Both the position numbers and the translations under genes were made by a program. From Solirubrum puertoriconensis (GTDB lineage: Bacteria > Bacteroidota > Bacteroidia > Cytophagales > Hymenobacteraceae), in the NCBI RefSeq assembly GCF_001483135.1, contig NZ_LNAL01000007.1:248001-312000 (forward strand): a stretch of 64,000 nt of DNA, written 5' to 3'. Every line of letters starts with the position of its first letter. Positions within the stretch are counted from its first letter, which is position 1. Below are positions 1 to 47,644 of this stretch, piece by piece. A model generated the notes under the pieces. It was not told the origin of the DNA. It made no database searches and was given only the letters and a program-made list of their open reading frames with translations.

Positions 1-180
1 CTCGCCTACCATCGTGAGCAAATCACCTAGGGTAAACACCGAGCTCGTATCGGGCTGCGGGGTGGCCCTAGGTGCCGTGGGTGCCTGGGCTGCTGCCGGG
101 GTAGGCAGGGCCGTGGAGGTGGTTCCGAGCAGCGCAGCGCCTAGCAAGGTGGTCAGCCAAAAACGGCGCTTAAGTATCAT
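1..180 (-). CDS. TolC-like outer membrane efflux protein, N-terminal part only
   Basis: An open frame begins with ATG at 180 and runs off the left edge, giving 60 residues. It starts MILKRRFWLTTLLGAALLG, a basic n-region and hydrophobic core typical of a Sec signal peptide, followed by an Ala/Pro/Thr-rich stretch and then SVFTLGDLLTMVGE, which resembles the start of the first helix of TolC-type outer membrane factors. Its ATG overlaps the TGA of the HlyD-family gene (ATGA at 177-180), so the two are translationally coupled. With the ABC and HlyD genes upstream it would complete a tripartite exporter by forming the outer membrane channel. The family call rests mainly on context because only the leader and the first mature residues are visible. 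Confidence 0.6.
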   Translation of the reverse strand, partial: MILKRRFWLTTLLGAALLGTTSTALPTPAAAQAPTAPRATPQPDTSSVFTLGDLLTMVGE

Positions 181-1580
181 AGCTCGGTTTCGTCGGAACT
201 GCTAGCAGATTTGTCTTTGGAGGCTTTGGCTTTGTCGGCTTTGTCGTCGGCACCGCCGCCGCCGTAGCCCACGAAGTTGGGCGGGAAGCCGTTGAGCTGA
301 CGCCAGAGCTCGTACCAAATGGGTACATCATCGAGCAGGGCCCAGCCGTACACGCCCGAGCCCACGCGCAACGGTTTAGGCCAGGGTTCTTCGTCGGGGT
401 CGGGCGTTACCAGAATGCGGTAGCGGCCCTGCGAATCGAGGTTGTCGATTACGGCCACCACGCCGCCGAACGTACCAAAGCTGGTGCCCGGCCACCCCGA
501 AAACACCAAGGCGGGCCAGCCATCGAACTGCAAGCGCACCTTGCGGCCCACCTCGAGCAGCGGAATATCCATGGGCTGCACGTACAGCTCGGCGGCCAGC
601 TGCGGCTTATCGGGCATTACGGTTACAATCGGTTCCCCTTCCTTAATTACCTCGCCCAAGCCAGCTTTCAGAGCGCGCACCACGTAGCCATCTTGCGGCG
701 CCGTGATGCGGTAAAAGCCCGAACGTATGCTCAGGTTGGCGTATTCGTTGCGCATTTTGGAAATCTGGCCCTCGGTATCGAACTGGTACGCCAGCGTGCT
801 GCGGCGGTCCGATTCGGATTTGGCCAGCTTATCCTGGTACTCGGCCTGCAACGAGTTCAGCTCCAACTCGGCGTTTACCAACTCTTGGCGGGTGGCAGCT
901 ACCTTGTTTTCGACAGCTTGGCGCTTGGCCGTCGATTCCTGAAACTTCAGGCGGCGCTGTTCCAACTCGGTTAGCGACTTAAGGCCCTGGCGGTACAAAG
1001 CCTCCTGGCGCTCCAGCTGCTGCTGGGCAATGGCAAAATCGTTGTTGGCAGCCTGCAGCTCGGCTTGGTCGCTGTTCAGCTTTAGGCGGGTTTGCTCCAC
1101 TTTGTTGCGGGCCTTATTAAGGCTTACCTGCAAACCGGTGCGCAAGGCAGCCTGCTGATCTTCGAGGGCTTCGCCTTTGGCTACGTTTTCGCGCAGCGAG
1201 GCCTCCTTGGCCGCCAACTGCTCGCGCGTGCGGGCCAGGAGTTGCGGGTCGAAGTACTTGTCCTTGATTTCGGCAATTTCCACGAGCGTATCGCCGCGCT
1301 TCACCAGCTGGCCCTCGCGCACACGCCACCGCTCAATGCGGCCGGCAATGGTGCTGGGTACGGTTTGGGGGCGGTCTTGCGGGCGCAAGGTGGTGAGGGT
1401 ACCACCCGAGCGAATGTTCTGCGTCCAGGGCAGGAAGCCTGCCAGGAATATACCTAGGCTCAGTCCGGCGCACCAGCGAGCCAGGGTGCGGCCGGCCGTA
1501 GGCGTTTGCACCAAATCGAAGGAGCGGAAAACTCCGGCCGAGGGGTGCGTTTCGGGACTTGGTTTCTCAGCGAAAGGCAT
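177..1580 (-). CDS. HlyD-family membrane fusion (periplasmic adaptor) protein
   Basis: 467 residues. A short cytoplasmic N-terminus is followed by one membrane segment around residues 35-55 (CAGLSLGIFLAGFLPW), then a biotinyl-lipoyl-like half (STIAGRIERW, VREGQLVKRGDTLVEI), a long Gln/Glu/Ala-rich coiled coil at about 110-280, the second lipoyl half (TAPQDGYVVRALKAGLGEVIKEGEPIV), and a beta-barrel C-terminus ending in a Lys/Asp/Ser-rich tail. This is the HlyD/EmrA layout; the protein links an inner membrane transporter to a TolC channel. It lies 108 nt downstream of the ABC gene and overlaps the TolC-like start by 4 nt. ATG at 1580 is the first start after the preceding gene. The substrate is not evident. 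Confidence 0.9.
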   Translation of the reverse strand: MPFAEKPSPETHPSAGVFRSFDLVQTPTAGRTLARWCAGLSLGIFLAGFLPWTQNIRSGGTLTTLRPQDRPQTVPSTIAGRIERWRVREGQLVKRGDTLVEIAEIKDKYFDPQLLARTREQLAAKEASLRENVAKGEALEDQQAALRTGLQVSLNKARNKVEQTRLKLNSDQAELQAANNDFAIAQQQLERQEALYRQGLKSLTELEQRRLKFQESTAKRQAVENKVAATRQELVNAELELNSLQAEYQDKLAKSESDRRSTLAYQFDTEGQISKMRNEYANLSIRSGFYRITAPQDGYVVRALKAGLGEVIKEGEPIVTVMPDKPQLAAELYVQPMDIPLLEVGRKVRLQFDGWPALVFSGWPGTSFGTFGGVVAVIDNLDSQGRYRILVTPDPDEEPWPKPLRVGSGVYGWALLDDVPIWYELWRQLNGFPPNFVGYGGGGADDKADKAKASKDKSASSSDETEL

Positions 1581-1688
1581 GAGGTTATGAGCAATGAGGA
1601 ATTGAATGACTGCGGACCGGAGCGCGCCTTGCGGAAAGGACGGTTTCGAAGGTCCGGGAATCCAGTTGCGCTCAATGGCGCCAGGAGG

Positions 1689-14232: not shown

Positions 14233-15765
14233 TTATTCCCACTCGATGGTTGCTGGCGGCTTCGACGAAATGTCGTACACCACGCGGTTGATGCCGCGCA
14301 CCTGGTTGATGATGCGGTTCGATACATCAGCCAAGAACTCATAGGGCAGGTGCGCCCAGTCGGCCGTCATGCCATCAACGCTGGTAACGGCACGTAGGGC
14401 CACCACCTGCTCGTAGGTGCGCTCATCGCCCATTACGCCCACGCTCTGGATAGGCAGCAGAATAGTACCGGCTTGCCACACCTTGTCGTAAAGGCCGGTT
14501 CGGTGCAGCGCGTCGATGAAGATGGCGTCGGCTTCTTGCAGCAGGCGTACCTTCTCGGGCGTAATGTCGCCCAGAATACGGATGCCCAAGCCCGGGCCGG
14601 GGAAGGGGTGCCGGTGTAAAATGTTGTGCGGCAGACCTAGGGTGTCGCCCACTTCGCGCACCTCGTCTTTGAACAGCATGCGCAGCGGCTCCACCACTTT
14701 AAGGTGCATTCGCTCTGGCAAGCCGCCTACATTGTGGTGGCTCTTGATAGTAACGGCCGGGCCTTTTACCGATACCGACTCAATCACATCGGGGTAAATA
14801 GTGCCTTGGGCCAACCACTTGGCGCCTTCTACTTTGTGCGCCTCGCGGTCAAACACCTCAATAAAGGTGCGGCCAATGGCTTTGCGCTTGTGTTCGGGGT
14901 CGGTGAGGCCTCGGAGCGCAGCGTAAAACTCTTCCGAAGCATCTACGCCCGTTACGTTCAGGCCCAGACCTTGGTAGGAGTGGAGCACGCTCTCAAACTC
15001 CTCTTTCCGCAGCAAGCCGTTGTTCACGAAGATACCGTGCAGGCGCGGACCGATAGCGCGGTGCAACAGCAGCGCCGCCACCGACGAATCGACTCCGCCC
15101 GAAAGACCTAGGATTACCTGGTCGTCGGGGCCAATGGTTTGCTGCAGCGCAGCCACGGCGCCATCCACGAAGTGCTCCGGCGTCCAGTCCTGGGCGCAAC
15201 GGCAAATGTTCACCACAAAGTTGGCCAGCAACAGCTTGCCCTGGGTGGAGTGCGTTACCTCGGGGTGAAACTGAATGCCGTAGGTGGGCTGATTATCGAT
15301 CTGGAAAGCGGCCACCCGCACCTCGGGCGTGCTGGCAATAACGTGGTAGTTATTGGGCAGCGTCTTAATCGTGTCGCCGTGCGACATCCAGACCTGCGAG
15401 TTGAGGCTTATGCCGTGCATGAGCGGGTTCTCGTCGCGCAGGTCGGAGAGGCGTGCCCGCCCGTACTCCCGAATGGTAGCCGGCAGCACCTCGCCGCCGG
15501 CTTGGTGGGCCAGCAGCTGTGCCCCGTAGCACACGCCCAGCACCGGCACCTTGCCTAGGTACTTGCTGAGGTCGGGGTTGGGAGCTTCGGGGTCGCGCAC
15601 CGAGCAGGGGGAGCCCGAAAGCACAACGCCCCGGATGTCCTCAGTGAGGTCCGGGGCGTGCGTGAAGGGGTGGATTTCGCAGAAGACGTTCAGCTCGCGG
15701 ATGCGCCGCGCTATCAGCTGCGTGTACTGCGACCCGAAATCAAGGATCAAAATCTGTTGAGGCAT
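14233..15765 (-). CDS. guaA: GMP synthase (glutamine-hydrolysing)
   Basis: 510 residues from ATG 15765; the in-frame TTG at 15771 overlaps the -7 box. An N-terminal class I amidotransferase ([20 protein letters not shown], nucleophile [18 protein letters not shown]) precedes the ATP-pyrophosphatase domain with the PP-loop [21 protein letters not shown], and the C-terminal dimerisation domain ends with the conserved [18 protein letters not shown]. It converts XMP to GMP using glutamine and ATP. The length is normal. The gene is monocistronic with its own promoter, whose predicted transcription start falls at the initiation codon, and its own terminator. Confidence 0.97.
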
Positions 15766-15768
15766 GGG

Positions 15769-15800
15769 CAAAGGTAGGATGCCAGAGCCGAGCTATCCAA
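15769..15800 (-). promoter_or_regulatory. guaA promoter, apparently giving a leaderless transcript
   Basis: On the minus strand TTGG (15797-15800), a 20-nt spacer, then TACCTTTG (15769-15776), only 3 nt before ATG. The identical architecture at the SRP RNA gene places the RNA 5-prime end 5 nt after the last G, which here is the start codon itself. Confidence 0.7.
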
Positions 15801-16769: not shown

Positions 16770-16801
16770 TTGCAAATCCGCGGCTAGGCGTGTTACCTTT
16801 G
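16770..16801 (+). promoter_or_regulatory. Promoter of the SRP RNA gene
   Basis: TTGC (16770-16773), a 20-nt spacer, and TACCTTTG (16794-16801). The conserved RNA 5-prime end (GGCGAA at 16806) follows 4 nt later, which calibrates start-site predictions elsewhere in this window. Confidence 0.75.
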
Positions 16802-16805
16802 CAAC

Positions 16806-16902
16806 GGCGAATCAGTACGACCAGCTCCTGCTGAACTCCCCCAGGACCGGAAGGTAGCAAGGGTAGGTGGTTGAGCGGTGCGATACTGGTTCGCTTTTTT
16901 TT
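16806..16902 (+). ncRNA. ffs: Signal recognition particle RNA, small bacterial type
   Basis: The apical domain IV is diagnostic: CAGGACCGGAAGGTAGCAAGGG at 16842-16863 carries the GGAAG tetraloop side and the asymmetric internal loop bound by Ffh. The ends pair: GCGAA-CAGTA (16807 onward) with TACTGG-TTCGC (16884-16894), followed by an eight-T run as terminator. The RNA is about 90 nt, similar to E. coli 4.5S. It pairs functionally with Ffh, encoded at 44506-45846. Confidence 0.93.
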
Positions 16903-17003
16903 GTGCCTGCCCCAACTAGCCGAGGCGAAGGTTCGTTTCCTTCGCCGCCAACAAACGGTTAGCTTTGGGGCATCTTTTGTTTTAGGGCTTTAAGCTTTTT
17001 CGA

Positions 17004-17660
17004 ATGAAGTTTTTCATTGATACCGCCAACCTGAAGGACATTCAGGAAGCTGTGGAGCTGGGCGTGCTCGACGGCGTTACTACCAACCCCTCGCTGATGG
17101 CAAAAGAAGGCATCGGCGGCCACGACAACGTAATGGCGCACTACAAGCGCATTTGCGAACTGGTAGACGGCGACGTTTCGGCGGAGGTAATTGGCACCAC
17201 GTACGATGAGATTGTGCGCGAAGGCGAGGCCCTGGCTGAACTGCACCCCAACATTGTGGTGAAAGTGCCCATGATTCGGGAAGGGGTAAAGGCTATCAAG
17301 CACTTCTCCGAAAACGGCATCAAAACCAACTGCACGCTCATCTTCTCGGCAGGCCAAGCCTTGCTGGCTGCCAAAGCCGGTGCTACCTACGTGTCGCCTT
17401 TTGTAGGCCGCCTCGACGATATCGGGCACGATGGTTTGCAGCTGATCGAGCAGATCGTGAGCATCTTCGGTAACTACGGCTACCCTACGCAAGTGCTGGC
17501 TGCCTCGCTGCGCCACGTGCCGCACCTTATTCAGTGCGCCGAAATTGGTGCCGACGTGGTTACCTGCCCGCTTAATGTAATTACGGGCCTGCTGAACCAC
17601 CCGCTTACCGACAAAGGCCTGGCTACCTTCCTGGCCGACCACAAACGCGTTAACGCTTAG
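17004..17660 (+). CDS. Transaldolase-like fructose-6-phosphate aldolase (TalC/FSA subfamily)
   Basis: 218 residues, the usual length of the short class I aldolase subfamily. [31 protein letters not shown], the Schiff-base Lys in NIVVKVPM (about residue 85), [29 protein letters not shown] and the C-terminal [12 protein letters not shown] are all family signatures. It catalyses either sedoheptulose-7-P transaldolase or DHA/glyceraldehyde-3-P condensation; distinguishing the two requires active-site Gln/Phe inspection by alignment. A TAGCTTTG box at 16960-16967 gives a leader of about 30 nt. Confidence 0.92.
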
Positions 17661-17668
17661 TTATAGCT

Positions 17669-17754
17669 GAGTTCTGAATGCTGGATTCTGATTCGCGCTT
17701 CGTTTCCTAAACAATAAGCCTGCTTCAGAATTCAGCATTCATCATTCAGAACTC
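17669..17754. repeat. Imperfect inverted repeat between the aldolase gene and the 67-residue gene
   Basis: Left arm 17669-17691 begins GAGTTCTGAATGCTG; right arm 17725-17754 is its reverse complement apart from a 7-nt insertion. The arms are A/T-rich, unlike the flanking genes, and resemble the TTCTGAAT-type dispersed palindromes that occur between genes in many bacteria. It could act as a weak terminator or be a decayed miniature element. Confidence 0.6.
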
Positions 17755-17760
17755 CGAAGG

Positions 17761-17964
17761 ATGTACATTATCAAAGTCAAAGGCAAGGCCAAGATTCCGG
17801 ATTACATTCAGCTACGCGACAACGATTTCGTGCTGATTGCCTATTTCCGCGCCGACCGCCCCCTGAAGGACCTGCACCGCTACGGCCTCGAAGGAAAGGA
17901 AACCGAGTTGGCGGCCTTAATCGAGCAACTCGAGTTCGGCAAGCTGCAGCCGCTGAATTTGTAA
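17761..17964 (+). CDS. Small conserved-looking protein of unknown function
   Basis: 67 residues: an N-terminal beta-rich half (MYIIKVKGKAKIPDYIQLRD, FVLIAYFRADRP) and an amphipathic helix (KETELAALIEQLEFGKLQPL). It has no signal or membrane segment. The codon use matches neighbours, and it sits 100 nt before ftsE on the same strand, immediately after the inverted repeat. I do not recognise a family; a compact alpha/beta domain is likely. Confidence 0.6.
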   Translation: MYIIKVKGKAKIPDYIQLRDNDFVLIAYFRADRPLKDLHRYGLEGKETELAALIEQLEFGKLQPLNL

Positions 17965-18065
17965 CGCTGCTTGCCTAAGCGGTACACTCCGCCGCTCACC
18001 ATTACTTTACAAGCCTGCCCTAGATAGCCGAATGCAGGCTGCCGGAATAGCCGCTTTTCATCGCC

Positions 18066-18770
18066 ATGGACAACTCCGCCGTTATTGAGCTCCGCGACGC
18101 CTACATTATGCAGGACGTAAACACTGTGCTGCAAAACGTGTCGTTCGAGTTGGGCAAGGGCGAGTTTGCTTATTTGGTGGGCCGCACCGGTTCGGGCAAA
18201 AGCTCGTTGCTGAAAACTCTGTACGCCGACTTGCCGCTGCACGAAGGCATGGGCACGGTGGTAGGGTATACGTTGCGTAACCTTGCTCCCGAAAAAGTGC
18301 CTTACCTGCGGCGGAAACTGGGCATTGTATTTCAGGACTTTCAGCTGCTCTACGACCGCACCGTGGCCCAGAACCTGCTATTTGTGCTGCAAGCCACCGG
18401 CTGGCGCGACAAGGCCAAAATGAAGCAGCGCGTGCAGGATGTGCTCATACGCGTAGGCCTCACGGGCGTAACCGGCAAAATGCCGCATCAGCTTTCGGGC
18501 GGCGAGCAGCAGCGCGTGGTAATTGCCCGCGCCCTGCTTAACGAGCCGATGCTGCTGCTGGCCGACGAGCCCACCGGTAACCTCGACCCCGACGTGACCG
18601 ACGGCATTATGCGCTTGTTCATGGAAATCAACAACGCCGGCACGGCCGTGTTCATGGCCACCCACAACTACGAGCTGATTCGGCGTTACCCCAAGCGCGT
18701 TTTCCGCTGCGAAGAGGGCAAGCTGCGCGTTATCAGCAACGACGACCTACGCGTAAGCACCTGGCTCTAG
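18066..18770 (+). CDS. ftsE: Cell-division ABC transporter ATP-binding protein FtsE
   Basis: 234 residues. All ABC motifs are intact: Walker [13 protein letters not shown] (about 40), Q-loop [10 protein letters not shown], signature [16 protein letters not shown], Walker [14 protein letters not shown]-loop [20 protein letters not shown] and the overall length fit FtsE rather than LolD or MacB. FtsE with FtsX controls periplasmic peptidoglycan hydrolases at the division site. ftsX is not adjacent, which is common in this phylum. Confidence 0.88.
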
Positions 18771-18830
18771 CCGAGGCCGCCCCAGCCGCCTAGGTTTGTA
18801 TTGTTGCCTTTTCTTCAGCCCCTTGCTACC

Positions 18831-19748
18831 ATGCCTGGCCTGTCGGTACTCATACCGGTGTACAACTGCGATGTGCGGGCGCTGGTGCAAGCATTGGTAA
18901 GCCAAGCCGCCGCTTGGCCTGGCCCCGTGGAGCTGCTGTGCTTCGACGATGCCTCCGAAGAACCGTTTAGAAAGCTTAACCGCGAAGTTGCGGCCTTGCC
19001 TAGGGTGCGTTACCACGAGCTGCCGCACAACCTAGGGCGCTCGGCCATTCGCAACCGCTTAGCCGCCGAAGCTGTCCACCCGTGGCTTTTGTTGCTCGAC
19101 AACAACGTGCGCATTACAAGCCCCGAGTTTTTGGCGCGGTATGCTGCCGCGCTGCTCCAAGTTCCGGTAATTGTGGGCGGCTCGGTGTACTCCGAAACAC
19201 CGCCCGCCGACGTGCGCCAGCACCTGCGCTGGCACTATGGGCGCACTCGCGAAGCCCGTCCGGCCACGGAGCGGCAGCAGGCACCCTACGCGCAGTTCAA
19301 CCTGAAGAATGTGCTGATTAGCGCGGCCGTGTTCCGGCAATTTCCGCTTGATGAAACCCTGACCCAATACGGCCATGAGGACACCAAGCTAGGTTGGGAG
19401 CTGCACCAACACGCGGTGCCCGTGTACCACATGAATAACCCCGTTGAGCACGCCGCGCTTGAGCCAGCCGAGGTGTTTCTGCAGAAAAGCCAAGCGGCGG
19501 TGTACAACCTGCTGCAGCTCTACCAAGCCCATGGTCTAGGTGCCGAAACCAAGCTGCTGGCTACGGGTTTGCGGCTGCGACGCCTAGGGCTGGCAGGTGT
19601 GGCTTTGCGTGCCCTCAGACAAGCCGAACCGTGGCTGACGCGCAAGGCACAGCAGGCAAATCCCAGCTTGCGAAGCTTCGACTTGCTCAAACTTTTATGG
19701 CTGCTGCAAGCGTGGGAGCCAAACTCTGAAAACAAAAAGCCGGCCTAG
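18831..19748 (+). CDS. Glycosyltransferase family 2 protein
   Basis: 305 residues from ATG 18831 (TTG 18801 is less likely). The GT-A fold start LSVLIPVYNCDVRALV, FDDASEE, LPHNLGRSAIRNRLA and ETLTQYGHEDTKLGWELHQ are typical GT2 landmarks. The usual DxD-like metal motif after the second Rossmann half reads LLLLDNNVRI, so the second acidic residue is Asn. The gene is isolated, with a TAGGTTTG box at 18791-18798 and a strong hairpin that overlaps its stop codon. Sugar donor and acceptor are unknown; a role in surface glycan or glycolipid synthesis is likely. Confidence 0.85.
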   Translation: MPGLSVLIPVYNCDVRALVQALVSQAAAWPGPVELLCFDDASEEPFRKLNREVAALPRVRYHELPHNLGRSAIRNRLAAEAVHPWLLLLDNNVRITSPEFLARYAAALLQVPVIVGGSVYSETPPADVRQHLRWHYGRTREARPATERQQAPYAQFNLKNVLISAAVFRQFPLDETLTQYGHEDTKLGWELHQHAVPVYHMNNPVEHAALEPAEVFLQKSQAAVYNLLQLYQAHGLGAETKLLATGLRLRRLGLAGVALRALRQAEPWLTRKAQQANPSLRSFDLLKLLWLLQAWEPNSENKKPA

Positions 19749-19764
19749 GTAAGGCCGGCTTTTT
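19734..19764. terminator. Bidirectional intrinsic terminator
   Basis: AAAAAGCCGGCCT (19734-19746) pairs perfectly with 19752-19764 around a 5-nt loop and ends in T5 on either strand. It serves the GT2 gene and the convergent lipoprotein gene. The stem/loop junction includes a CCTAGG and the GT2 stop codon. Confidence 0.9.
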
Positions 19765-19790
19765 CATGCAATAGGCAATGGGGTAGTAGC

Positions 19791-20768
19791 TTAATCGTTG
19801 TCGGTGTTTTTCACTTCCGATTTCACTTCCTTGTAGGCGCCCTTCACGGCACCGCCTACCTTCTGACCAACGTTCTTGGCGCCTTGGCCAGCGTCTTTGC
19901 CAGTTTCGGCGGCGTCCTTGCCTACTTCTTTAGCATCGGAGCCAGCATTGCGAGCCGATTGCTCGAGGCGTACGCCCGAACCTTTGGCCGCGGCTTCTTC
20001 GCGGTTGCCGGTGGCCAGATCGGCGCCCTGCGATACGCGGGTTTCGGCTTTGTCGTACGATTTAAAGGCGGCGTATTTCACCTTCTCCTTGGCAATTTCG
20101 GCTTTGTCGCTGCCGCTCACGTCGCCTTTGATCTGTTCGTACTTCTGGTCGAGGGCGCGCCACTCAGCGTTAATGTTACGCCAGTCGTTGATGTCGTAAC
20201 GGTCTTCGTTTTGCTTCACCATCTGCACGAAGTCTTCGTAGGTCTGGCGGGCATTGGTGGCCGTAAGGTTAGCAGCAGGGTTGCTGGGCTTGTAGTACTT
20301 GCCCATGGTGCCGGCGGCCGATGAGGTGTTCATGGAGCTGCTGCCCGAAGCCGAGCTGCCGCCGGTGGTCGTGTTCATGGCTACCGCGCCGCGGTTGCGA
20401 TACGCTTCTTCGCGACGCGTGTAGGCCGTGGTGTAGCGGGTTTTTAGCTGCTCGTACTCGGTTTTGCGGTTGTCATCCCAAGTGGCCATGTCGGCCTCAG
20501 CAGCGGCCACTCGGCTGTCGTAGTCGCTTTTGAGCTGGGTCGTTTCTTCGTTGAACTCAGCCTCCGTCATTTCGCCAATGTTTTCGGCACGGGCTTCGGT
20601 GTTGGCTACAAACGATTTGAAATCGTTGTAGGCATCGTTGGTAGCGGCAGCCGTTTCGTTAGCAGTTTCCTGGCGTTCGGCGCGGTTGCAGCTAGCTTGG
20701 CTGAAGGCAATACCCCCGCCCAGCAACAGCAGGGCTAGGGCGTGTGTGGAAATGGTTTTCTTAAACAT
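19791..20768 (-). CDS. Lipoprotein with helical and LEA-like C-terminal region
   Basis: 325 residues from ATG 20768, which gives MFKKTISTHALALLLLGG and a lipobox ending SQASC, so the product should be lipidated and exported. Residues about 25-150 are helical and charged (ETTQLKSDYDSRVAAAEADMATWDDNRKTEYEQLKTRY). A Ser/Gly/Thr linker follows, then a second helical block repeating the pattern. The C-terminus is a Lys/Gly/Ala/Glu repeat (AKEVGKDAAETGKDAGQGAKNVGQKVGG) of the LEA/YtxH type seen in desiccation-tolerance proteins. I infer an envelope stress role. An extension upstream to 20858 is open but unsupported. Confidence 0.65.
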   Translation of the reverse strand: MFKKTISTHALALLLLGGGIAFSQASCNRAERQETANETAAATNDAYNDFKSFVANTEARAENIGEMTEAEFNEETTQLKSDYDSRVAAAEADMATWDDNRKTEYEQLKTRYTTAYTRREEAYRNRGAVAMNTTTGGSSASGSSSMNTSSAAGTMGKYYKPSNPAANLTATNARQTYEDFVQMVKQNEDRYDINDWRNINAEWRALDQKYEQIKGDVSGSDKAEIAKEKVKYAAFKSYDKAETRVSQGADLATGNREEAAAKGSGVRLEQSARNAGSDAKEVGKDAAETGKDAGQGAKNVGQKVGGAVKGAYKEVKSEVKNTDND

Positions 20769-20954
20769 GATGGTCAGGAGTTTGGTGGGAAGGAAGCCAC
20801 CTGCGGCAGCGGCTATCTTGGCCCGCTTAACGCAGGGCATACATAGTAGGTTACGCATGTTTAGTAGCCAGGATGCCTGATTTCACCGATTTTCGTTGCG
20901 TCAATCCAGCTTAAAAACTACTGCGGGGCTATATTTCGGTTTTCCTGCCCTGTT

Positions 20955-25524: not shown

Positions 25525-25553
25525 GTGCCCCAACGGGCACCCAAGCGTTGGTG

Positions 25554-25586: not shown

Positions 25587-25611
25587 CGGTATCAATTCTT
25601 TACTCTGAAGG

Positions 25612-25712: not shown

Positions 25713-25757
25713 TAGCTGTGGGCTTTACCTGCCACTTTCCCGCTTCTAGCTTCCATT

Positions 25758-25874
25758 GTGCACCTGCACACCGCCCGTTTGCCCGCTCTGCTTCGGCTGC
25801 GCAATTGCCAACGCGCGCCTGTTGCTGTTGTTGTTGAGGCTAGTTGGCGCAGCAGTGCTGAGCCACTAAGATAA
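25758..25874 (+). CDS. Candidate 38-residue leader peptide after the SAM riboswitch
   Basis: GTG start at 25758, TAA at 25872-25874. The product begins (V/M)HLHTARLPALLRLRNCQRA and continues with PVAVVVEASW, then RSSAEPLR; it is Arg-rich and has one Cys. Its stop overlaps the ATG of the next mini-ORF by one base (TAATG), the classic sign of translational coupling. It starts 46 nt after helix P1. No known family is recognised; coding is supported only by position, coupling and host-like codon use. It could be a regulatory leader peptide or a chance frame. Confidence 0.4.
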   Translation: MHLHTARLPALLRLRNCQRAPVAVVVEASWRSSAEPLR

Positions 25875-25948
25875 TGCCGCGCCTGAAGCCGACTGCTCGG
25901 GCCACCTACGCGCATTACTTCCTAGGCTACGCCCGTCCTGGCGCCTAA
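25874..25948 (+). CDS. Candidate 24-residue peptide overlapping the first mini-ORF
   Basis: ATG at 25874 shares its A with the preceding TAA. The product is MPRLKPTARATYAHYFLGYA plus RPGA, basic and aromatic. The codon pair CTA GGC lies in a CCTAGG. Between its stop (25948) and the permease ATG (26072) there are 123 nt with no visible gene. Confidence is low because of the length. Confidence 0.3.
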   Translation: MPRLKPTARATYAHYFLGYARPGA

Positions 25949-26071
25949 CTCCTGTGCTAACCATTTCTTTTCTGGCTGCTGCAAGCCTGCCCAAGCTCTG
26001 GTGCTGAAGGGTGGTGTGCGCGGCGCCTCATTTTCGTTCGCACGCGTTGAAGCGCGTGCAACAAGCTGATT

Positions 26072-27553: not shown

Positions 27554-27599
27554 GCTGGCCCAGGCCCTGGCTACCTAGTACGTTTCTATCAATTTGCAC

Positions 27600-27626
27600 C
27601 GGGCCCGCGGCAGTGCCGCGGGCCCG
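27600..27626 (+). terminator. GC-rich hairpin after the permease gene
   Basis: A 12-bp perfect stem (CGGGCCCGCGGC 27600-27611 with 27615-27626) and a 3-nt loop. A T-rich stretch (ATTTGCTTTTG) follows. Confidence 0.65.
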
Positions 27627-27669
27627 ATTTGCTTTTGCGTGTATTTTGTGGCCTTATATTCTTAACCCA

Positions 27670-28566
27670 ATGGAACACATATATCCGCAAGAACCCTACA
27701 TGATGGCCGCGCCCGCCACTCCGCGCCGCCCCAAGAAAGCCTATCCGACCTACGCCGAAAGCTGGGGGGCGCTTGGCTGGTTTTTGCTTGCCTCCATCGT
27801 AATGGGCATTCCGCTACTGGTACTACCGCAGTGGTTGCCCCAAGCCCAAGCCGAAACCTACGGTATTGCCATTGGCTCATTTGCTACAGCCGTAGTTGTG
27901 TGGTTTTTAATCAAGCTTGAGGGCCCGAAACGCATTGTGCCGGCTAGTTGGAGTGGGCAACACGATAACGCTAGGTTGTACGCGATTATAGCCGTGGCAA
28001 CGTTGGCACTGCTGTACGTGCGGATACCCATTCATTGGCTGAATCTGCCCTCTTGGTCGTTGCCCGATATGCTGCTGAAGCTGATGGCACAGCCCGCTCT
28101 AGGTTTTGTGGTACTGTGCGTATTGGCGCCCGTGTTCGAGGAGTGGTTGTTCAGGGGAATACTGCTGCCGGGCCTGATGCGCAACTACGGGCCTACCAAG
28201 GCCATTCTGCAAACCAGCCTGTTGTTCGGTATCATCCACCTCAACCCAGCGCAGTCGTTGTCGGCGGCGTTGTTGGGCGTGTTTTTAGGCTGGCTGTATT
28301 ACCGTACCGGCTCGCTCCGGGCCTGCATTCTGGTACACGCCGTAAACAACTTCGTAGCCTGGGTGGGCCTGTTTATGATTCGGACCGACAAAGATGCCAT
28401 AGCCCAAATGACGAAGTACGAGGCGCCCAGCTGGCCCTTGGCTGCAGCAGCATTAGTTGGCGCGGTGGTGCTGGTGTTGATCATACGCTACCTGCAGCGC
28501 CTAACCAAGCCTTCTGAGGATTACGCTATTGTCGAAGCCAGCCCTGTTGCTGAAACCGCGCGGTAA
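27670..28566 (+). CDS. CPBP-family intramembrane metalloprotease
   Basis: 298 residues from ATG 27670 (MEHIYPQEPYMMAAP); the longer frame back to 27250 is antisense-like overlap with the permease and is rejected. About eight membrane helices. Active-site motifs are FEEWLFRGILLPGL (EExxxR, about residue 156), LLFGIIHLNPAQSL (FxxxH) and LVHAVNNFVAW (HxxxN). The family includes Rce1-like CaaX proteases and bacterial proteins linked to bacteriocin immunity or membrane signalling. The C-terminal hydrophobic helix is followed by a short charged tail. No neighbouring target is evident. Confidence 0.88.
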   Translation: MEHIYPQEPYMMAAPATPRRPKKAYPTYAESWGALGWFLLASIVMGIPLLVLPQWLPQAQAETYGIAIGSFATAVVVWFLIKLEGPKRIVPASWSGQHDNARLYAIIAVATLALLYVRIPIHWLNLPSWSLPDMLLKLMAQPALGFVVLCVLAPVFEEWLFRGILLPGLMRNYGPTKAILQTSLLFGIIHLNPAQSLSAALLGVFLGWLYYRTGSLRACILVHAVNNFVAWVGLFMIRTDKDAIAQMTKYEAPSWPLAAAALVGAVVLVLIIRYLQRLTKPSEDYAIVEASPVAETAR

Positions 28567-28589
28567 ATTCAGCGCCTGCGCTTAAGCGA

Positions 28590-28649
28590 CTACTCACAAT
28601 CCTGGGCCGGACGAAGCTATGCTTTGCTCCGGCCCAGGATTGTGAGTAG
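28590..28649. terminator. 22-bp perfect inverted repeat between convergent genes
   Basis: Arms 28590-28611 (begins CTACTCACAATCCTGGGCC) and 28628-28649 are exact reverse complements with a 16-nt loop. The right arm and part of the loop encode the last residues of the flippase gene, whose stop is at 28617. It can terminate transcription from both sides, although there is no T-run. Confidence 0.7.
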
Positions 28650-30095
28650 CAAGGGCGTTGCCTCTGGCACTGCCTGTGTTGCCAGCACCAAGCCCCCGTA
28701 TACTGCAGTAAGGGCTGCCGAGCGCACGAACATCGTTAGCCACACGGAGGGGAACGTGGGCACCAGCCAACCTACCAGGCCCGCCAGGGCAGCAATGCCC
28801 AGCAGCAGCGGTATGCGCTTATCGAAGGGCTGCAGCCGGTAGCTGTGCCATACAAACCACGTGCGCGCCACGTTGATGAGCACCAGAGCCAGCGAGGTAG
28901 CCGCTGCCGAACCACCCAACCCGTAGCGCGGAATCAGCACAAGGTTGAGCAGCACGGTAAGCACTGCCAACGAGGCATTGAAGATGAGGTCGTAGCGGTA
29001 GCGCGGTGAGGTTACCACAATCAGCGCGTTTACGCCGGTAATGCCATCAAACAGGCGGCCTAGCAGCAGCAGCAGCACGGCCGTAGCCCCGGCTGCGTAC
29101 TCTGGTTTCATCAGGGAGTAAATAAAATCGAGGTTGAGGCCAATGCCCAGCGCCAGGTAGCAGCCCAGCACGGTGTTGAGGCGCGTGGTGCTGCGGTAAA
29201 ACTCGGCCATGCGCCCTAGGTCGTGCTGCTTCCAGTAGTCGGCCAGCAGCGGAAAGGCAATCTTGTAGAGCGAGCGAAACGGAATGGTTAGCGCCGTGCT
29301 GATAAAAAACGCGACCGAGTAGACCCCCGCGGCTCCTAGGTTAAGCTTCGAGCCAACCATTAGGGCATCAATGGAGCTGATGACAGTGCCTGAAATGTTC
29401 GAGAGGAGGGCAAAGCCGCTAAAGCCCAGTAACTCACCTAGGGGCCGTACTTGCAGCACTTCGCGCTGCGGGCGCAAATGCAACTCGCCGATAAAGGCCA
29501 AGTAAGCCGTGAGTAGCAGGGCAATGCCGCTGTTCAGGCCGATATACAGCAGCACAAACTGATGAAAGTTTAAGTAGCCGGCATCGAACGCCAATGCTGC
29601 TCCTGCCACCAGCACCCGCAGTAGCACCTCCTGCACTACTGAGGAAAAGGCAGTGTGGTACAGGGCTTTCAGGTAAGCATCCTGTAGGGAATAGAGCAGC
29701 GTAAACAACGCCAGTACCACGCCCCATTGGTAGTAAGGGCCAAGCAGAGCTGCGTCAGAAGAATACTGCTCCATTACCAAGGGCTTGCCCCCTAGGTAGA
29801 GCACCGTCATCAGGGCAAAGCCCAGCAAGGGCAAACCCAGCAAGAAAGGCAGAAACCCGTGGTGACCGGCTTCGCGGTTGCGGAAGTAGGGAAAGAACCG
29901 GATGCCCATGCTCGCAAAGCCCACTGCCGACAACTGTGCGTAGATGGTGGCAACGGAGATGAGCACCCGGGTGAGCCCAAGTTGCTCGTCTTCGAGGATG
30001 CGGGGCAACACGAAAACCGTGTTGACGAACCCCAGCCCCAGGCCGATATAGGAGATAGCAGTGTTGCGCAGCCCTTGGCGCTGGACGATGCCCAA
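28617..30095 (-). CDS. Wzx-type polysaccharide flippase (MATE-like/PST family)
   Basis: 492 residues, about 14 membrane helices. The N-terminus RQGLRNTAISYIGLGLGFVNTVFVLPRIL is typical of O-antigen and capsule unit flippases; GSSAAATSLALVLINVARTWFVW and repeated hydrophobic blocks match throughout. TTG 30095 is the best start; no ATG lies between it and the in-frame stop of the preceding gene. It is the last gene of the ten-gene operon that begins at pseC. It should carry lipid-linked glycan units containing the nonulosonate across the inner membrane. Confidence 0.88.
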   Translation of the reverse strand: MGIVQRQGLRNTAISYIGLGLGFVNTVFVLPRILEDEQLGLTRVLISVATIYAQLSAVGFASMGIRFFPYFRNREAGHHGFLPFLLGLPLLGFALMTVLYLGGKPLVMEQYSSDAALLGPYYQWGVVLALFTLLYSLQDAYLKALYHTAFSSVVQEVLLRVLVAGAALAFDAGYLNFHQFVLLYIGLNSGIALLLTAYLAFIGELHLRPQREVLQVRPLGELLGFSGFALLSNISGTVISSIDALMVGSKLNLGAAGVYSVAFFISTALTIPFRSLYKIAFPLLADYWKQHDLGRMAEFYRSTTRLNTVLGCYLALGIGLNLDFIYSLMKPEYAAGATAVLLLLLGRLFDGITGVNALIVVTSPRYRYDLIFNASLAVLTVLLNLVLIPRYGLGGSAAATSLALVLINVARTWFVWHSYRLQPFDKRIPLLLGIAALAGLVGWLVPTFPSVWLTMFVRSAALTAVYGGLVLATQAVPEATPLLLTILGRSKA

Positions 30096-30125
30096 AATCA
30101 GTGCGGAGTTGACAGGTGGCGAAAG

Positions 30126-31514
30126 TCAGGCCGACGTAGGGGCAAACCGGGTCAGCACATCGGACCCTACCACAAACGCGGCATGACGGCTGCGAAGGTA
30201 GCGCACCAACGCGTGGAACTGCCTAGGCCCGTTGAGCTGATTGCGCCGCGAAAAATTTTCGTTGTGCCACAGCAGCGTAAATACCCCGCCAAAATGCTCA
30301 ATCTCGGCCAGCATGGGCCGCACGGCTGGCAGGATGTCGTCGGGGCCAAGCTGCAGGTAGTTGGGGTGGTGCAAGGTGGCATCCATCAGATTCAGTGGGA
30401 TTTCCAAGAACCCATGGCAGCCGCCTGTGGCAAAGTTGTGCGGCCAGAACGGCAGGCAGTAGCTGTGCCGAAAGCCAAAGTGCTCGGCAAAACCCAGGGT
30501 GGTATCAAACTGCACGCCTACCTCGTCGAGCACGGCGGGCGTGCGCTGCGGCTCCCAGCTGAGGTAATGAAAGCGGTTGCCCCGGATAGGAGGTGGCAGC
30601 TGCTCGATTTCGCGCTGCAGCGCCTCGGGGCTGGCGCTGGTGCCAATGCTGCCATGCACCCCAATTTCGGCGCCGCCCGAGCGCAGCCGCTGCAAGCAGC
30701 GCTGGTAGCGGGGGTGGCGCACATCGTAATCGGCATTGGGTGTGCCGTTGGGGGCGGGCTTGGCGTTGCCCAGCATGAAGAACGTGGAAGTTTGGCCGTG
30801 CACGGCAACTTCGCGCTGCACCGTGTCAAGATTATCCCAGGCATCGCGCCCACCTAGGCGGCGCGTAAGCAGCGACATAAACGTGCCTACCTTACCGGCT
30901 TTGAGGGCTTTTTTTCCTTCGGCCTTCCAACCACTGCGGCAGTTATCTACGTCGTGGGTTATCCAGCAGGCAAACGGGGCTTGGTGTGGCCAGGGCCGCC
31001 GAGGCAGAGTATAACCCAGTACATGCTCCACAGCCGTTCGCAGCAAATCGAAATAATAATTAACCACCGGCACCGCCACAAAACCGTAGCGGAGTTGCAC
31101 GCTAGCCCGGTATGGAAAGCGCCCGTGGTGGTCGCGCTCCGGCGAAAAATATTCCTGCCAACCGCTGAGCAGGTAAAACGCATTGGCTACCACATCGGCG
31201 TGGATGGTGGCGCGGCCCGGCGCCAGCGTAAGCAACTCGGCAGCGAGCTTCGGCTGAAAGAAGAACGGCAGCTTACGCCCGGCCCACTCGCGCCACACGG
31301 GTTCGGGAGGGTAGGGCGTGGCCTGCCCAAAGAAGCCCGTTTGTTGCGCTACTACCTGAACGGCGGCCTCGGGGTACAGTCCACCGTAGCCAATCGGCAG
31401 CGGCTCGGCATCGTAGGCCGACCAGAAATGCCGCAGCACATAGGCCAGCATGTTTTGCTGGCTCTCGCGTGCGGCAACGGGCTGCGTAGGCAGTGGTGAG
31501 GTAGCGGTTGGCAT
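30126..31514 (-). CDS. Polysaccharide deacetylase-like protein
   Basis: 462 residues. An N-terminal domain of roughly 165 residues (PLPIGYGGLYPEAAVQVVAQQ, WQEYFSPERDHHGRFPYRAS) precedes a NodB-type region: ACWITHDVDNCRSGWKAEG carries the Asp-Asp metal pair, GQTSTFFMLGNAKP and RSGGAEIGVHGSIGTSASPEAL carry the His motif, and VFTLLWHNENFSRRNQL lies near the end. This two-domain layout is common in Bacteroidota and Proteobacteria surface-glycan loci. It would remove N-acetyl groups from a sugar chain or intermediate; the substrate is unknown. Lies 30 nt before the flippase reading frame. Confidence 0.75.
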   Translation of the reverse strand: MPTATSPLPTQPVAARESQQNMLAYVLRHFWSAYDAEPLPIGYGGLYPEAAVQVVAQQTGFFGQATPYPPEPVWREWAGRKLPFFFQPKLAAELLTLAPGRATIHADVVANAFYLLSGWQEYFSPERDHHGRFPYRASVQLRYGFVAVPVVNYYFDLLRTAVEHVLGYTLPRRPWPHQAPFACWITHDVDNCRSGWKAEGKKALKAGKVGTFMSLLTRRLGGRDAWDNLDTVQREVAVHGQTSTFFMLGNAKPAPNGTPNADYDVRHPRYQRCLQRLRSGGAEIGVHGSIGTSASPEALQREIEQLPPPIRGNRFHYLSWEPQRTPAVLDEVGVQFDTTLGFAEHFGFRHSYCLPFWPHNFATGGCHGFLEIPLNLMDATLHHPNYLQLGPDDILPAVRPMLAEIEHFGGVFTLLWHNENFSRRNQLNGPRQFHALVRYLRSRHAAFVVGSDVLTRFAPTSA

Positions 31515-31585
31515 TGGACCTAAAGTAATGGCTTTGCCCTAGGTATGCCAGTGTTGAGCTTGCACGTGGGGTGCTTAAATTGCAG

Positions 31586-32890
31586 CTAGTGAGTTGGTTG
31601 ACTTAGCCAAAAATTGAGTTGTTGCAAGGCCAACTCTTGGCTGCGGCCTTCGTGCGGGGTACCTAGGGTAGCGCAGTAATACGCGGCACGCTGGTAGTGC
31701 TCGAGCGGTTTGTGCTGGGCGTAGCGCTTTAGCAACTCGCCTAATTCGGGTAGGTTGTGGGCCCGCTCCACCAAGCCTTGGGCAGCATATCCGTAGTAAT
31801 CGTCGGCTACGCCGTGGTTGCTGAAACGGTAGTACAGGCTGGCGAGGTTGAGCAAGGTAGCCTCGAGGTGCGTAGAGGTGTCGGCGGCAATAAGCGCATC
31901 GTGCTGCTGCAGAAACTCAAACACCGACTCCTGCCGCGCGTCGGAAAATTGCAGTTGTGGAAAGCGTTGGCGCAACTCGGCAAAGCTGCGCGCATCGCTG
32001 GGGTGAGCCCGGAAGGTGAAGCTGAGGTGCGGAAAGTTAGCGAGTAAGTACACTACGGCGGCCAGCAGCCCATCGGTATCGTCGAGGGTATTGGCCGCAA
32101 TGGCTACGCGCTGCACCCTAGGGTGTTGGTTGCGCTGCCGGATAAAGGCATCGGCCTTGGGCATGCCTACCAGTTGTACTTGGCCCCGCACCGGTCCGCA
32201 TTGGCGGTATTTATCCAGCGCGTCCTGTCCTTCGAGCAAGCTTAGGTCGAAGCCCAGGGGCGGAAAGTTGGTGCTGACACTGGCATGCTGCACGTAGGCC
32301 GTGGGTATGCCTTCGGCTACGCAGGCCAGTAGTAAAGCGCGGGCATCGTCGTTGTGGTCGTTGGCAAAAACCACCGCTTTGGGTTGATAATGCCGCAAGG
32401 CACGGCGGTACACCTCGTAGTAGCCAACGGCGTTAAAGATCAAGTCGAAAAAACGCCACGCCCTAGGTCCTTCGGTGCGCCACAAACCCAGCAGTACCTC
32501 GGGTAGCTGCCAGTAGTACAACAACTTGCGGCGCAACGAAAGGCGGTTTACCTGCTGGTTGTAGCGGCCAATTTGCTTGGCTTGGCCGGCTACCAGTACT
32601 GCGTCGGGGCGCTGCTCCCGAATGAAGCGCAGCGAGTCGTAGTTGTTTTGGCTGACGACGTACAGCCAGACGGCGCCACGCAACTGCTCGGGGTTCCGGA
32701 TTGGCCGAAACACGTTACCTACCAGCCGCACGGCCGCGTAGCCCAGTACTTTAACCAATCGCTTTAGGGGGTTGGCCGGCGAGATAGACGCGAGGGTTGT
32801 GGCCGGTAGCGAGGCAAACAGCGGCGTAAAACGCAGCTGCAGCGTATCGCGCAAGCGAGCAACGCGGTTGGTAGGCGGCCAAATTGCCAT
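31586..32890 (-). CDS. GT-B-like surface carbohydrate transferase (capsule/polysialyl-type)
   Basis: 434 residues. The layout suggests a two-Rossmann GT-B fold: PKAVVFANDHNDDARALLLACVAEGIPTAYVQHASVSTNF, GMPKADAFIRQRN, then RVAIAANTLDDTDGLLAAVVYLLANFPHLSFTFRAHPSDARS and ALIAADTSTHLEATLLNLASLYYRFSNHG. The QHA, RxHP and DTSTHLEA motifs recall CDP-glycerol glycerophosphotransferases and bacterial sialyl/nonulosonate transferases with His-Pro motifs. Its ATG overlaps the PseI stop (TAATG at 32890). Given this coupling it is my best candidate for the transferase that attaches the CMP-activated nonulosonate. Confidence 0.6.
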   Translation of the reverse strand: MAIWPPTNRVARLRDTLQLRFTPLFASLPATTLASISPANPLKRLVKVLGYAAVRLVGNVFRPIRNPEQLRGAVWLYVVSQNNYDSLRFIREQRPDAVLVAGQAKQIGRYNQQVNRLSLRRKLLYYWQLPEVLLGLWRTEGPRAWRFFDLIFNAVGYYEVYRRALRHYQPKAVVFANDHNDDARALLLACVAEGIPTAYVQHASVSTNFPPLGFDLSLLEGQDALDKYRQCGPVRGQVQLVGMPKADAFIRQRNQHPRVQRVAIAANTLDDTDGLLAAVVYLLANFPHLSFTFRAHPSDARSFAELRQRFPQLQFSDARQESVFEFLQQHDALIAADTSTHLEATLLNLASLYYRFSNHGVADDYYGYAAQGLVERAHNLPELGELLKRYAQHKPLEHYQRAAYYCATLGTPHEGRSQELALQQLNFWLSQPTH

Positions 32891-47113: not shown

Positions 47114-47140
47114 GCTAAGTATGGCTATTGTTGAGCCTAA

Positions 47141-47617
47141 CTAGTAATCGGTACGGCCTTCGTGTTTCTCCCAGGCCTGAAAACCTGCAATGGCCTCATC
47201 ACGCAGCAACTGCTCCATCGGAATCTGCCGGTCGGAGAGGGGCTTCTCGATTTCGTCGTAGATGAACTGGTCATCGAAGCCGATGGCGGCGGCATCTTGC
47301 TTGGTGTTGCCATAGAACACCCGCCGAGGGCGCGCCCAGTAAATGGCACCTAGGCACATGGGGCACGGTTCGCAGGAGGTATACAGGTCGCAGCCGTCGA
47401 GCTGGAAAGTGCCGAGCTCCTTGCACGCTTTGCGGATTGCATCAACCTCGGCGTGGCAGGTGGGGTCGTTGGTGCTGGTTACCTGGTTAAAACCGCGGGC
47501 AATGATGCGGCCGTCCTTCACGATTACCGCACCAAACGGGCCACCGTGGCCGGCTTGCATTTTCTCTATTGAGAGGCGAATGGCCTCGCGCATGAATTCG
47601 GGATTGGGAGTGTCCAT
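47141..47617 (-). CDS. Nucleoside/guanine deaminase of the cytidine deaminase superfamily
   Basis: 158 residues from ATG 47617. The zinc site is intact: CHAEVDAIRKAC (HAE, His ligand and catalytic Glu) and SCEPCPMCLGAIYWARPRRVFYG (PCxxC). HGGPFGAVIVKDGRIIARGFNQV and the C-terminal DEAIAGFQAWEKHEGRTDY, which swaps into the active site of the dimer, match Bacillus GuaD-type guanine deaminases rather than TadA. It would convert guanine to xanthine. A TACTTTTG box lies about 30 nt upstream. Confidence 0.88.
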   Translation of the reverse strand: MDTPNPEFMREAIRLSIEKMQAGHGGPFGAVIVKDGRIIARGFNQVTSTNDPTCHAEVDAIRKACKELGTFQLDGCDLYTSCEPCPMCLGAIYWARPRRVFYGNTKQDAAAIGFDDQFIYDEIEKPLSDRQIPMEQLLRDEAIAGFQAWEKHEGRTDY

Positions 47618-47644
47618 AGCTAGGTACTGAACGGGAAAAGGCTG

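What the first reader, a model, noticed from the sequence alone, without database searches (positions are those of the whole stretch)
1..47640. CCTAGG is a highly iterated palindrome in the host part and stops at the prophage
By hand I count about 70 CCTAGG in the first 47.6 kb (one per about 680 bp). At roughly 60% GC a random sequence would give about 15. The 16 kb prophage has only 3, close to chance. Copies occur on coding and non-coding DNA (for example 14051, 15804, 23006, 27549, 40882), often as CCTAGGT or ACCTAGG. In genes they mostly fall as x-CTA-GGn (Leu-Gly), although CTA is otherwise a rare Leu codon here, so the word and not the protein seems to be favoured. This parallels HIP1 in cyanobacteria, whose function is still debated.
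Basis: partly seen in the sequence, partly recalled or inferred. Interest (0 to 1): 0.72.

Follow-up and report, generated by a model that had tools for sequence, protein, structure and literature searches.

The report
Lineage-specific DNA words in Hymenobacter genomes
This bacterium's chromosome carries a short DNA word about once every thousand letters, dozens of times more often than its near relatives do; some related bacteria carry other words instead, and no enzyme found so far explains them, so the word may be a self-recognition tag for DNA.

Summary
In detail: 70 CCTAGG in 1-47640, 3 in the prophage part. The genome has 6212 in 4.80 Mb; five of its seven held congeners have 123-249, a 33- to 63-fold lower density. 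Thirteen of 204 family genomes exceed 1000; of 392 drawn across the phylum only the window's own does.
Here the word is not the palindrome but ACCTAGGS: 471 of 587 sampled sites have A on one side and G or C on the other. Other lineages carry other words at about one per kb: ACCTAGST, CCCTAGGS, TGGCCTA, CCTACCC, all containing CCTA.
Codon use does not explain it: density is twofold higher between genes; in C_GG context Leu is CTA in 323 of 475 codons, 5 of 486 in poor congeners. Nor does simple decay: precursors vary, transversions included.
Four methyltransferase families searched do not track it. Pilus ATPases are over cut-off in 0 of 30 genomes; ComEC is in 29.
Best reading: a self-DNA recognition word with an unidentified reader, in uptake/recombination or genome maintenance.

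The parts
1..47640 (.). Host chromosome with 70 CCTAGG at 26, 67, 1453, 2299, 3076, 4166, 4890, 5037, 6524, 7508, 7814, 8421, 8502, 9093, 10176, 10808, 10866, 12139, 12623, 12815, 14051, 14636, 15107, 15554, 15803, 16421, 18789, 18999, 19031, 19583, 19744, 21563, 21743, 21986, 23006, 23325, 25520, 25921, 26143, 26455, 27549, 29215, 29335, 29437, 29791, 30222, 30853, 31538, 31662, 32117, 32462, 33116, 33245, 34187, 35436, 35601, 36468, 38464, 38928, 39369, 39838, 40883, 41235, 41868, 41898, 42063, 42825, 43304, 46643, 47349
   Evidence: flanks and phases
14233..15771 (-). guaA (GMP synthase) with three sites (14636, 15107, 15554) whose orthologous states were read in seven congeners; 15554 is CCTAGG in G005 and CCCAGG in G006 and in all five poor congeners
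16793..32344 (.). Block collinear with CCTAGG-poor congener G003; part of the orthologous site comparison
47641..64000 (.).
56773..58146 (-). Prophage portal protein, which identifies the element
   Evidence: phrog_11226, E 4.7e-30
62204..62842 (-). Prophage protein with head-maturation-protease matches (best match a family of unknown function)
   Evidence: phrog_24921, phrog_34096, phrog_3017

Best explanation
CCTAGG is the core of ACCTAGGS, a lineage-specific genome word; the core stands at about 1.3 per kb. Shown: the word is enriched 33- to 63-fold over close congeners by whole-genome counts (about 90-fold in sampled stretches), is exact in sequence, is conserved as a word, is used on both strands and in genes and between them, is depleted in the prophage, and is replaced in some other Hymenobacter lineages by other CCTA-containing words at similar density. 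Inferred: a sequence-specific DNA-binding protein, not identified, reads the word, and its specificity has drifted between lineages, giving dialects. Inferred, less certain: the word marks self DNA for uptake and homologous recombination by a pilus-free Bacteroidota machinery with ComEC. Word-bearing fragments would be taken up or recombined preferentially, which drives the word up until most fragments carry one copy. A genome-maintenance reader inside the cell is the close rival.
For: Clade-limited gain: 6212, 5678 and 5325 against 123-249 copies within one genus; the three rich congeners group together in a GuaA tree (support 100/100), and the other rich genomes placed fall in three more groups. 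Dialects at similar density per 100 kb: A ACCTAGGS 112, B ACCTAGST 105, C (G109) CCCTAGGS 100, D TGGCCTA 107, G083 CCTACCC 133, G060 CCTACCC 116; in poor congeners 1 to 11. guaA loci not used to find the D word also carry TGGCCTA at 132-198 per 100 kb in G080, G082 and G172, 4.5 kb each. Word conservation: CTA kept in C_GG context in 59/69 (G005) and 47/69 (G006) codons against 32/119 and 23/116 elsewhere. Varied precursors: 12 of 34 informative sites differ from every aligned outgroup at two or more bases, and 8 of 20 single-step sites are transversions. Apparent protein cost: outgroup is Leu-Gly in 91/166 comparisons at word sites against 290/386 at other Leu-Gly. Even spacing in clade A: variance/mean per 2 kb 0.65, 0.75, 0.76 against null 0.97-0.99. 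No strand bias. Prophage depletion. ComEC in 29 of 30 genomes. Riemerella transforms although no pilus homologues were found in its genome (PMC8459023, passages).
Against: No type IV pilus/T2SS ATPase over cut-off in any of 30 genomes; one match below cut-off, in G060. So the machinery of the well-studied uptake-sequence systems was not found. Forms one base away from CCTAGG are not raised (1-off O/E 0.67-0.74 in rich, 0.69-0.79 in poor congeners), unlike the shoulder tabulated for an Actinobacillus uptake sequence (947 against 86 expected, PMC1939737). Spacing is significantly even only in clade A and marginally in C; not in B, D or the CCTACCC genomes. Site conservation is not unique: in G006 CCTAGG is kept in 62%, and single control palindromes reach 76% (GTGCAC, 22/29), 63% (CAGCTG) and 62.5% (TGCGCA). 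Single-step gains are richer in transitions (12 of 20) than control palindromes (7 of 33). ComEC is equally present in wordless genomes, so it does not discriminate. No receptor was found. One search listed one paper holding 'Hymenobacter', 'natural transformation' and 'competence' together (PMC8565304, on LexA, one occurrence each, not read); I know of no transformation report for the genus.
Confidence: 0.38

Rival explanations
1. HIP1-like genome-maintenance word: an intracellular protein (mismatch repair, recombination, nucleoid or segregation factor) reads the word, and selection keeps one copy per roughly 0.8 kb. The lineage words follow changes in that protein.
For: Density within the HIP1 range (300-2700 per Mb in most cyanobacteria outside Group C1, PMC4390886 Table 2); sharp exact word with no visible 1-off shoulder; even spacing in clade A; palindromic octamers common in B and G109; no pilus found.
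Against: Non-palindromic, drifting words with a shared CCTA core are more like uptake-sequence dialects; no candidate protein; orientation is unrelated to GC skew, which argues against a Chi- or KOPS-like polar reader.
Confidence: 0.34
2. Methyltransferase-coupled HIP (Elhai 2015): a methyltransferase for CCTAGG or part of it creates or maintains the word through repair.
For: In cyanobacteria all genomes with highly over-represented sequences had at least one putative methyltransferase able to methylate them (PMC4390886, Results parts 1-3 of 4 and section 3.4 part 1 of 2). PF02384 is present in 11 of the 13 rich genomes, though also in 4 of 6 poor ones searched. Other methyltransferase families were not searched.
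Against: Of the 13 genomes above 1000 CCTAGG: PF00145 absent from 9, PF01555 from 8, PF02384 from 2, G000 and G164, PF02086 from 13; the single-contig genome G164 has none of the four. Among 72 candidate ORFs read, no aligned pair (over 150 aa, E 1e-20 or better) from two rich genomes exceeds 42% identity; 11 PF02384 matches of rich genomes were not fetched, among them the only ones of G070, G082 and G140. The window genome has one such gene, PF01555 on contig C4, a family absent from G005.
Confidence: 0.13
3. Mutational bias: a context-dependent mutation or very short patch repair process turns CCCAGG/CCTGGG into CCTAGG.
For: Non-conserved sites are often CCCAGG/CCTGGG in G006 (26 of 43; in G005 10 of 31), a common outgroup state too; single-step gains are richer in transitions (12 of 20) than control palindromes (7 of 33).
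Against: Transversions 8 of 20 and multi-step origins 12 of 34; even spacing in clade A; CCTAGG rises by one to two orders of magnitude while its 1-off neighbours do not change; the word differs between lineages.
Confidence: 0.05
4. Codon or codon-pair preference for Leu-Gly.
For: Most coding copies lie as xC-CTA-GGx (372 of 401).
Against: Density is 2.2 per kb between genes against 1.07 in genes; CTA is not favoured outside the C_GG context; the other phase that avoids a stop is used too (29 of 401).
Confidence: 0.01

Closest known systems
HIP1 and alternate HIPs of cyanobacteria (GCGATCGC; GGCGCC, rCCGGy, GCsGC), Elhai 2015, PMC4390886
   Same: About 1 copy per kb genome-wide, sporadic between close relatives, replaced by other words in some lineages, exact and conserved.
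   Different: Word asymmetric in this clade and non-palindromic in some sister lineages (palindromic octamers are common in B and G109); shared CCTA core; no tracking methyltransferase found in four families; Bacteroidota.
DNA uptake sequence dialects of Neisseriaceae (Frye et al. 2013, PMC3630211; passages read)
   Same: Thousands of copies of a short non-palindromic word, lineage-specific variants around a fixed core (CTG there, CCTA here); some relatives without any word.
   Different: 7-8 bp instead of 10-12; no type IV pilus ATPase found; no visible 1-mismatch shoulder of CCTAGG; no uptake shown.
Chi sites (recalled: RecBCD/AddAB recombination hotspots)
   Same: Short over-represented non-palindromic words that differ between lineages.
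   Different: Chi in E. coli is 1008 against 151 expected (PMC1939737 Table 6); here 33- to 63-fold over congeners; no orientation bias seen.
AvrII/BlnI/XmaJI restriction-modification (CCTAGG)
   Same: Same hexamer (enzymes named in PMC1939737).
   Different: Restriction targets are usually avoided (recalled), not enriched; no matching methyltransferase found; flanks matter.

Membership tests
HIP (cyanobacterial type) | Perfect palindrome as the over-represented unit | tested here: not met
   In the window's clade 471 of 587 sites have A on one side and G/C on the other; ACCTAGGT only 18 sites; TGGCCTA and CCTACCC words elsewhere. Palindromic octamers are common in B and G109
HIP (cyanobacterial type) | Density of the order of 1 per kb, genome-wide, genes and spacers | tested here: met
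   6212 in 4.80 Mb; 1.07 per kb coding, 2.2 per kb non-coding
HIP (cyanobacterial type) | Resident methyltransferase for the site | tested here: inconclusive
   Four Pfam families searched, none tracks the word; specificities unknown, 11 matches not read, other families not searched
HIP (cyanobacterial type) | Sites conserved beyond expectation | tested here: met
   79/110 and 71/114 against 251/601 and 280/606 for other 4-GC palindromes pooled, though a few single palindromes match or exceed it in G006; codon test 59/69 and 47/69 against 32/119 and 23/116
DNA uptake sequence (Neisseriaceae/Pasteurellaceae type) | Non-palindromic short word at about 1 per kb, lineage dialects with a fixed core | tested here: met
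   partly palindromic in B and G109
DNA uptake sequence (Neisseriaceae/Pasteurellaceae type) | Type IV pilus machinery | tested here: not met
   PF00437 not over its cut-off in any of 30 genomes; over it in 13 of 14 control genomes
DNA uptake sequence (Neisseriaceae/Pasteurellaceae type) | ComEC inner-membrane DNA channel | tested here: met
   29 of 30 genomes, G000 included, wordless ones too
DNA uptake sequence (Neisseriaceae/Pasteurellaceae type) | Excess of 1-mismatch forms | tested here: not met
   1-off O/E of CCTAGG not raised; for ACCTAGG the 1-offs double (O/E 1.20-1.28 against 0.61-0.67), largely flank variants of CCTAGG by my reading
DNA uptake sequence (Neisseriaceae/Pasteurellaceae type) | Word increases DNA uptake | not testable with these tools
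   needs a transformation assay
Chi site | Orientation bias along replichores | tested here: inconclusive
   Correlation with local GC skew 0.11, -0.15, 0.21 over 20, 14, 18 loci; origin not mapped
Restriction-modification target | Avoidance of the site | tested here: not met
   Enriched, not avoided

The most novel reading that the evidence does not exclude
Hymenobacter has DNA self-recognition words with lineage dialects (ACCTAGGS, ACCTAGST, CCCTAGGS, TGGCCTA, CCTACCC; common core CCTA), read by an unknown, pilus-independent and methylation-independent system. It would be the first such dialect system in Bacteroidota that I know of, with species barriers set by the word.
Probability: 0.35. 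Interest if true: 0.9.

Novelty: new variant of a known kind. Interest (0 to 1): 0.77.

Why it matters
The function of HIP1 and the origin of uptake-sequence dialects are old open questions. Here congeners whose alignable DNA is about 78% identical differ 33- to 63-fold in the density of the word, several lineages carry different words, and neither of the two usual companions was found: no methyltransferase of the families searched tracks the word, and no type IV pilus ATPase was detected. That makes the question testable by simple binding, uptake and gene-content experiments in environmental bacteria, and it may separate explanations that coincide in cyanobacteria and Neisseria.

Tried and rejected
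Rejected: codon or codon-pair use (intergenic excess); C-to-T decay at a Dcm-like CCCAGG as the whole cause (first suggested by G006 states, then contradicted by transversion and multi-step origins, although transitions are over-represented among single steps); PF00145, PF01555, PF02384 and PF02086 methyltransferases as the driver, as far as searched; pilus-based uptake. A polar Chi/KOPS-like word is not supported but the test is inconclusive.

Led nowhere or limited: a first GuaA tree mixed strands and is discarded (the valid one is, which leaves out G164 because its GuaA match is split). The permease used gave few Hymenobacter loci among 80. The spacing result for D and G109 counted overlapping palindromic copies twice; one search corrects it. 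The sets in which words were found overlap those in which they were counted, so the counts are not an independent test, except the guaA loci. A paper search for CCTAGG with Hymenobacter found nothing; related searches showed no such word in Hymenobacter in the titles and abstract starts listed; only the PMC open library was searched. Gene calls come from a simple caller of my own (coding fraction 0.84), not a standard program, so some 'non-coding' DNA may be missed genes. Orthologous states come from local BLAST alignments.
Full report
What is there. The window holds 73 CCTAGG, 70 of them in 1-47640 and 3 in the prophage part. In the whole genome there are 6212 copies in 4.80 Mb against 136 of the control GGATCC. 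Within the genus group g1 (8 genomes held) three are rich (6212, 5678, 5325) and five poor (123, 249, 163, 201, 220); per Mb the window's genome exceeds the poor ones 33- to 63-fold. In sampled stretches the ratio is about 90 (1401 in 1040 kb of clade A, 7 in 480 kb of poor g1). Of 204 family genomes, 13 have more than 1000: three in g1 and ten in g5; the rest have 888 or fewer. In 392 genomes drawn across the phylum, only the window's own exceeds 1000 and the next has 734; in the order sample one genome of another family, G048, has 807.

The word is longer and, in this clade, asymmetric. In 447.6 kb of this genome (20 sampled stretches plus the window's host part) there are 587 sites. The strand-collapsed flank classes are ACCTAGGG 280 and ACCTAGGC 191, so 471 of 587 sites have A on exactly one side and G or C on the other; ACCTAGGA 42; ACCTAGGT 18; the rest 56. 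T is the 5' flank in about 4% of half-sites. Bases further out carry little information in G000 (at most 0.11 bits). The same asymmetry holds between genes: 119 of 160 non-coding sites. The same flanks recur in G005 and G006.

It is not the protein or the codons. Non-coding density is 2.2 per kb and coding density 1.07. In the context C_GG, Leu is CTA in 323 of 475 codons; elsewhere in 744 of 11042; in poor congeners CTA is 5 of 486 in that context. Of 401 coding sites 372 lie as xC-CTA-GGx and 29 in one other phase; the third would place a stop in frame.

It is conserved and was gained. Over about 84 kb of alignable DNA (86% identity) CCTAGG is kept in 79 of 110 sites in G005 and 71 of 114 in G006, against 251/601 and 280/606 for other palindromes with four G/C pooled; in G006 single control palindromes reach the same or more (GTGCAC 22/29, CAGCTG 45/71, TGCGCA 45/72). 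In the five poor congeners 0 or 1 of 35-48 sites is CCTAGG. The sharper test is by codon: with the Leu codon and its context conserved, CTA is kept in 59/69 and 47/69 codons at word sites and 32/119 and 23/116 elsewhere. Among 34 sites kept in G005 or G006 and aligned in at least two outgroups, the nearest outgroup state is 0, 1, 2, 3 changes away in 2, 20, 9, 3 cases; the 20 single steps are 12 transitions and 8 transversions. For 130 control palindromes the same counts are 84, 33, 11, 2, with 7 transitions and 26 transversions, so gains of the word lean towards transitions. Outgroups are Leu-Gly in 91 of 166 comparisons at word sites and 290 of 386 at other Leu-Gly pairs, which suggests that the word has also changed amino acids; these comparisons are not independent. 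One-mismatch forms of CCTAGG are not raised: O/E 0.67-0.74 in the three rich and 0.69-0.79 in the poor g1 sets.

Dialects. A GuaA tree of 29 of the 30 genomes searched puts the rich genomes in four groups: A (G000, G005, G006; support 100/100), B (G070, G076, G158; 100/99), C (G109, G125, G140; with G161, only 507 copies, inside; 82/87) and D (G080, G082, G172; 97/98). G164 was left out of that tree; I place it with D by its word. Unbiased 8-mer counts gave other words in other groups. Counts per 100 kb: ACCTAGGS is 112 in A, 35 in B, 68 in G125+G140, 11 in G109, 1 in poor g1. ACCTAGST is 105 in B and at most 9 elsewhere. CCCTAGGS is 100 in G109, 28 in G125+G140 and at most 6 elsewhere. TGGCCTA is 107 in D and 7-20 elsewhere. 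CCTACCC is 133 in G083, 116 in G060 and 55 in G124, at most 33 elsewhere. Reversed-word controls are at most 15. All words share CCTA. In B and G109 palindromic octamers are a large share of CCTAGG sites (ACCTAGGT 49 of 96 in G070; CCCTAGGG 45 of 103 in G109). No word of this set stands out in G104, G016, G011/G064, YC55/G171/G169 or poor g1. Samples outside A are small (15 to 220 kb a set, 480 kb for poor g1) and overlap those in which the words were found, so the fine shape of the words is provisional; guaA loci not used carry TGGCCTA at 132-198 per 100 kb in G080, G082 and G172.

Spacing and strand. In clade A the counts per 2 kb are under-dispersed (variance/mean 0.65, 0.75, 0.76; null 0.97-0.99, sd about 0.1), with a deficit of gaps under 200 bp (81, 71, 79 against 107, 96, 98); in C the effect is marginal, and in B, D and the CCTACCC genomes it is absent. 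The two orientations of ACCTAGGS are about equal (208/210, 165/178, 187/214) and unrelated to local GC skew.

Candidate machinery. PF00145 is absent from 9 of the 13 rich genomes, PF01555 from 8, PF02384 from 2 (G000 and G164; it is present in 11 rich and in 4 of 6 poor genomes searched) and PF02086 from all 13. G164, a single contig, has none of the four. Of 72 methyltransferase ORFs read from the fetched loci, no aligned pair from two rich genomes exceeds 42% identity; 11 PF02384 matches of rich genomes were not fetched, among them the only ones of G070, G082 and G140. The window genome's one such gene is PF01555 on contig C4; G005 has no member of that family. PF00437 (pilus and secretion ATPase) is not over its cut-off in any of 30 genomes (one match below it, G060), while 13 of 14 control genomes are over it. 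PF03772 (ComEC) is in 29 of 30, the miss being an 82%-complete genome. Riemerella, also Bacteroidota, is naturally transformable although no pilus homologues were found; ComEC, DprA, ComF, RecA and four proteins of unknown function are needed (PMC8459023, passages).

How it most likely works. A word that is exact, similar in density across different dialects, used on both strands, apparently costly to proteins and able to arise from many precursors suggests a trans-acting reader with real specificity. The dialect pattern and the excess between genes are those of uptake sequences (PMC3630211, passages; PMC1939737, passages and section 10). The lack of a pilus, the lack of a one-mismatch shoulder and the lack of regular spacing outside clade A (and weakly C) are not. 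So I commit to self-DNA recognition in uptake or recombination at 0.38, with a HIP1-like intracellular maintenance word close behind at 0.34. The methyltransferase model of Elhai (PMC4390886; outline, Results parts 1-3 of 4, section 3.4 part 1 of 2) is weakened by the searches but not closed, because other families were not searched and specificities are unknown.

Membership. It is not filed as a HIP (palindrome tested and not met in this clade; methyltransferase inconclusive) nor as a DNA uptake sequence (pilus and mismatch shoulder tested and not met). It works like a word of that general kind.

Noticed in passing
genus group g5 (G059-G172 and others), whole genomes: The control GGATCC is almost absent (0-9 copies in about 4-7 Mb) from many g5 genomes and at 150-300 in others: extreme, sporadic avoidance of a second palindrome.
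   Followed up: no
L105, L106, L124 and samples of G098, G154, G169, G171: CTAG, usually rare, is about 3-7 times commoner in several g5 lineages than in poor g1, in varied contexts, without a CCTAGG excess.
   Followed up: partly
window 47641-64000: The prophage has its own over-represented palindromes: GGCGCC 30 (9.8 expected) and ATCGAT 15 (4.0 expected) by third-order Markov.
   Followed up: no
window 32890-40945: Surface-sugar gene run on the minus strand with NeuB, cytidylyltransferase, aldo/keto reductase, DegT aminotransferase and polysaccharide-synthesis genes.
   Followed up: no
G161: Falls inside clade C in the GuaA tree but has only 507 CCTAGG: a possible recent loss of the word, though the genome is 82% complete and the support moderate.
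   Followed up: no
G164:C1:3655428-3656962: GuaA is matched in two overlapping pieces (residues 1-227 and 224-512), which suggests a frameshift or sequencing error.
   Followed up: no
many sampled Hymenobacter sets, rich and poor: TCGCGCA (within CTGCGCGA) is 3-4 times over expectation in rich and poor sets alike: a milder, shared word of unknown meaning.
   Followed up: no
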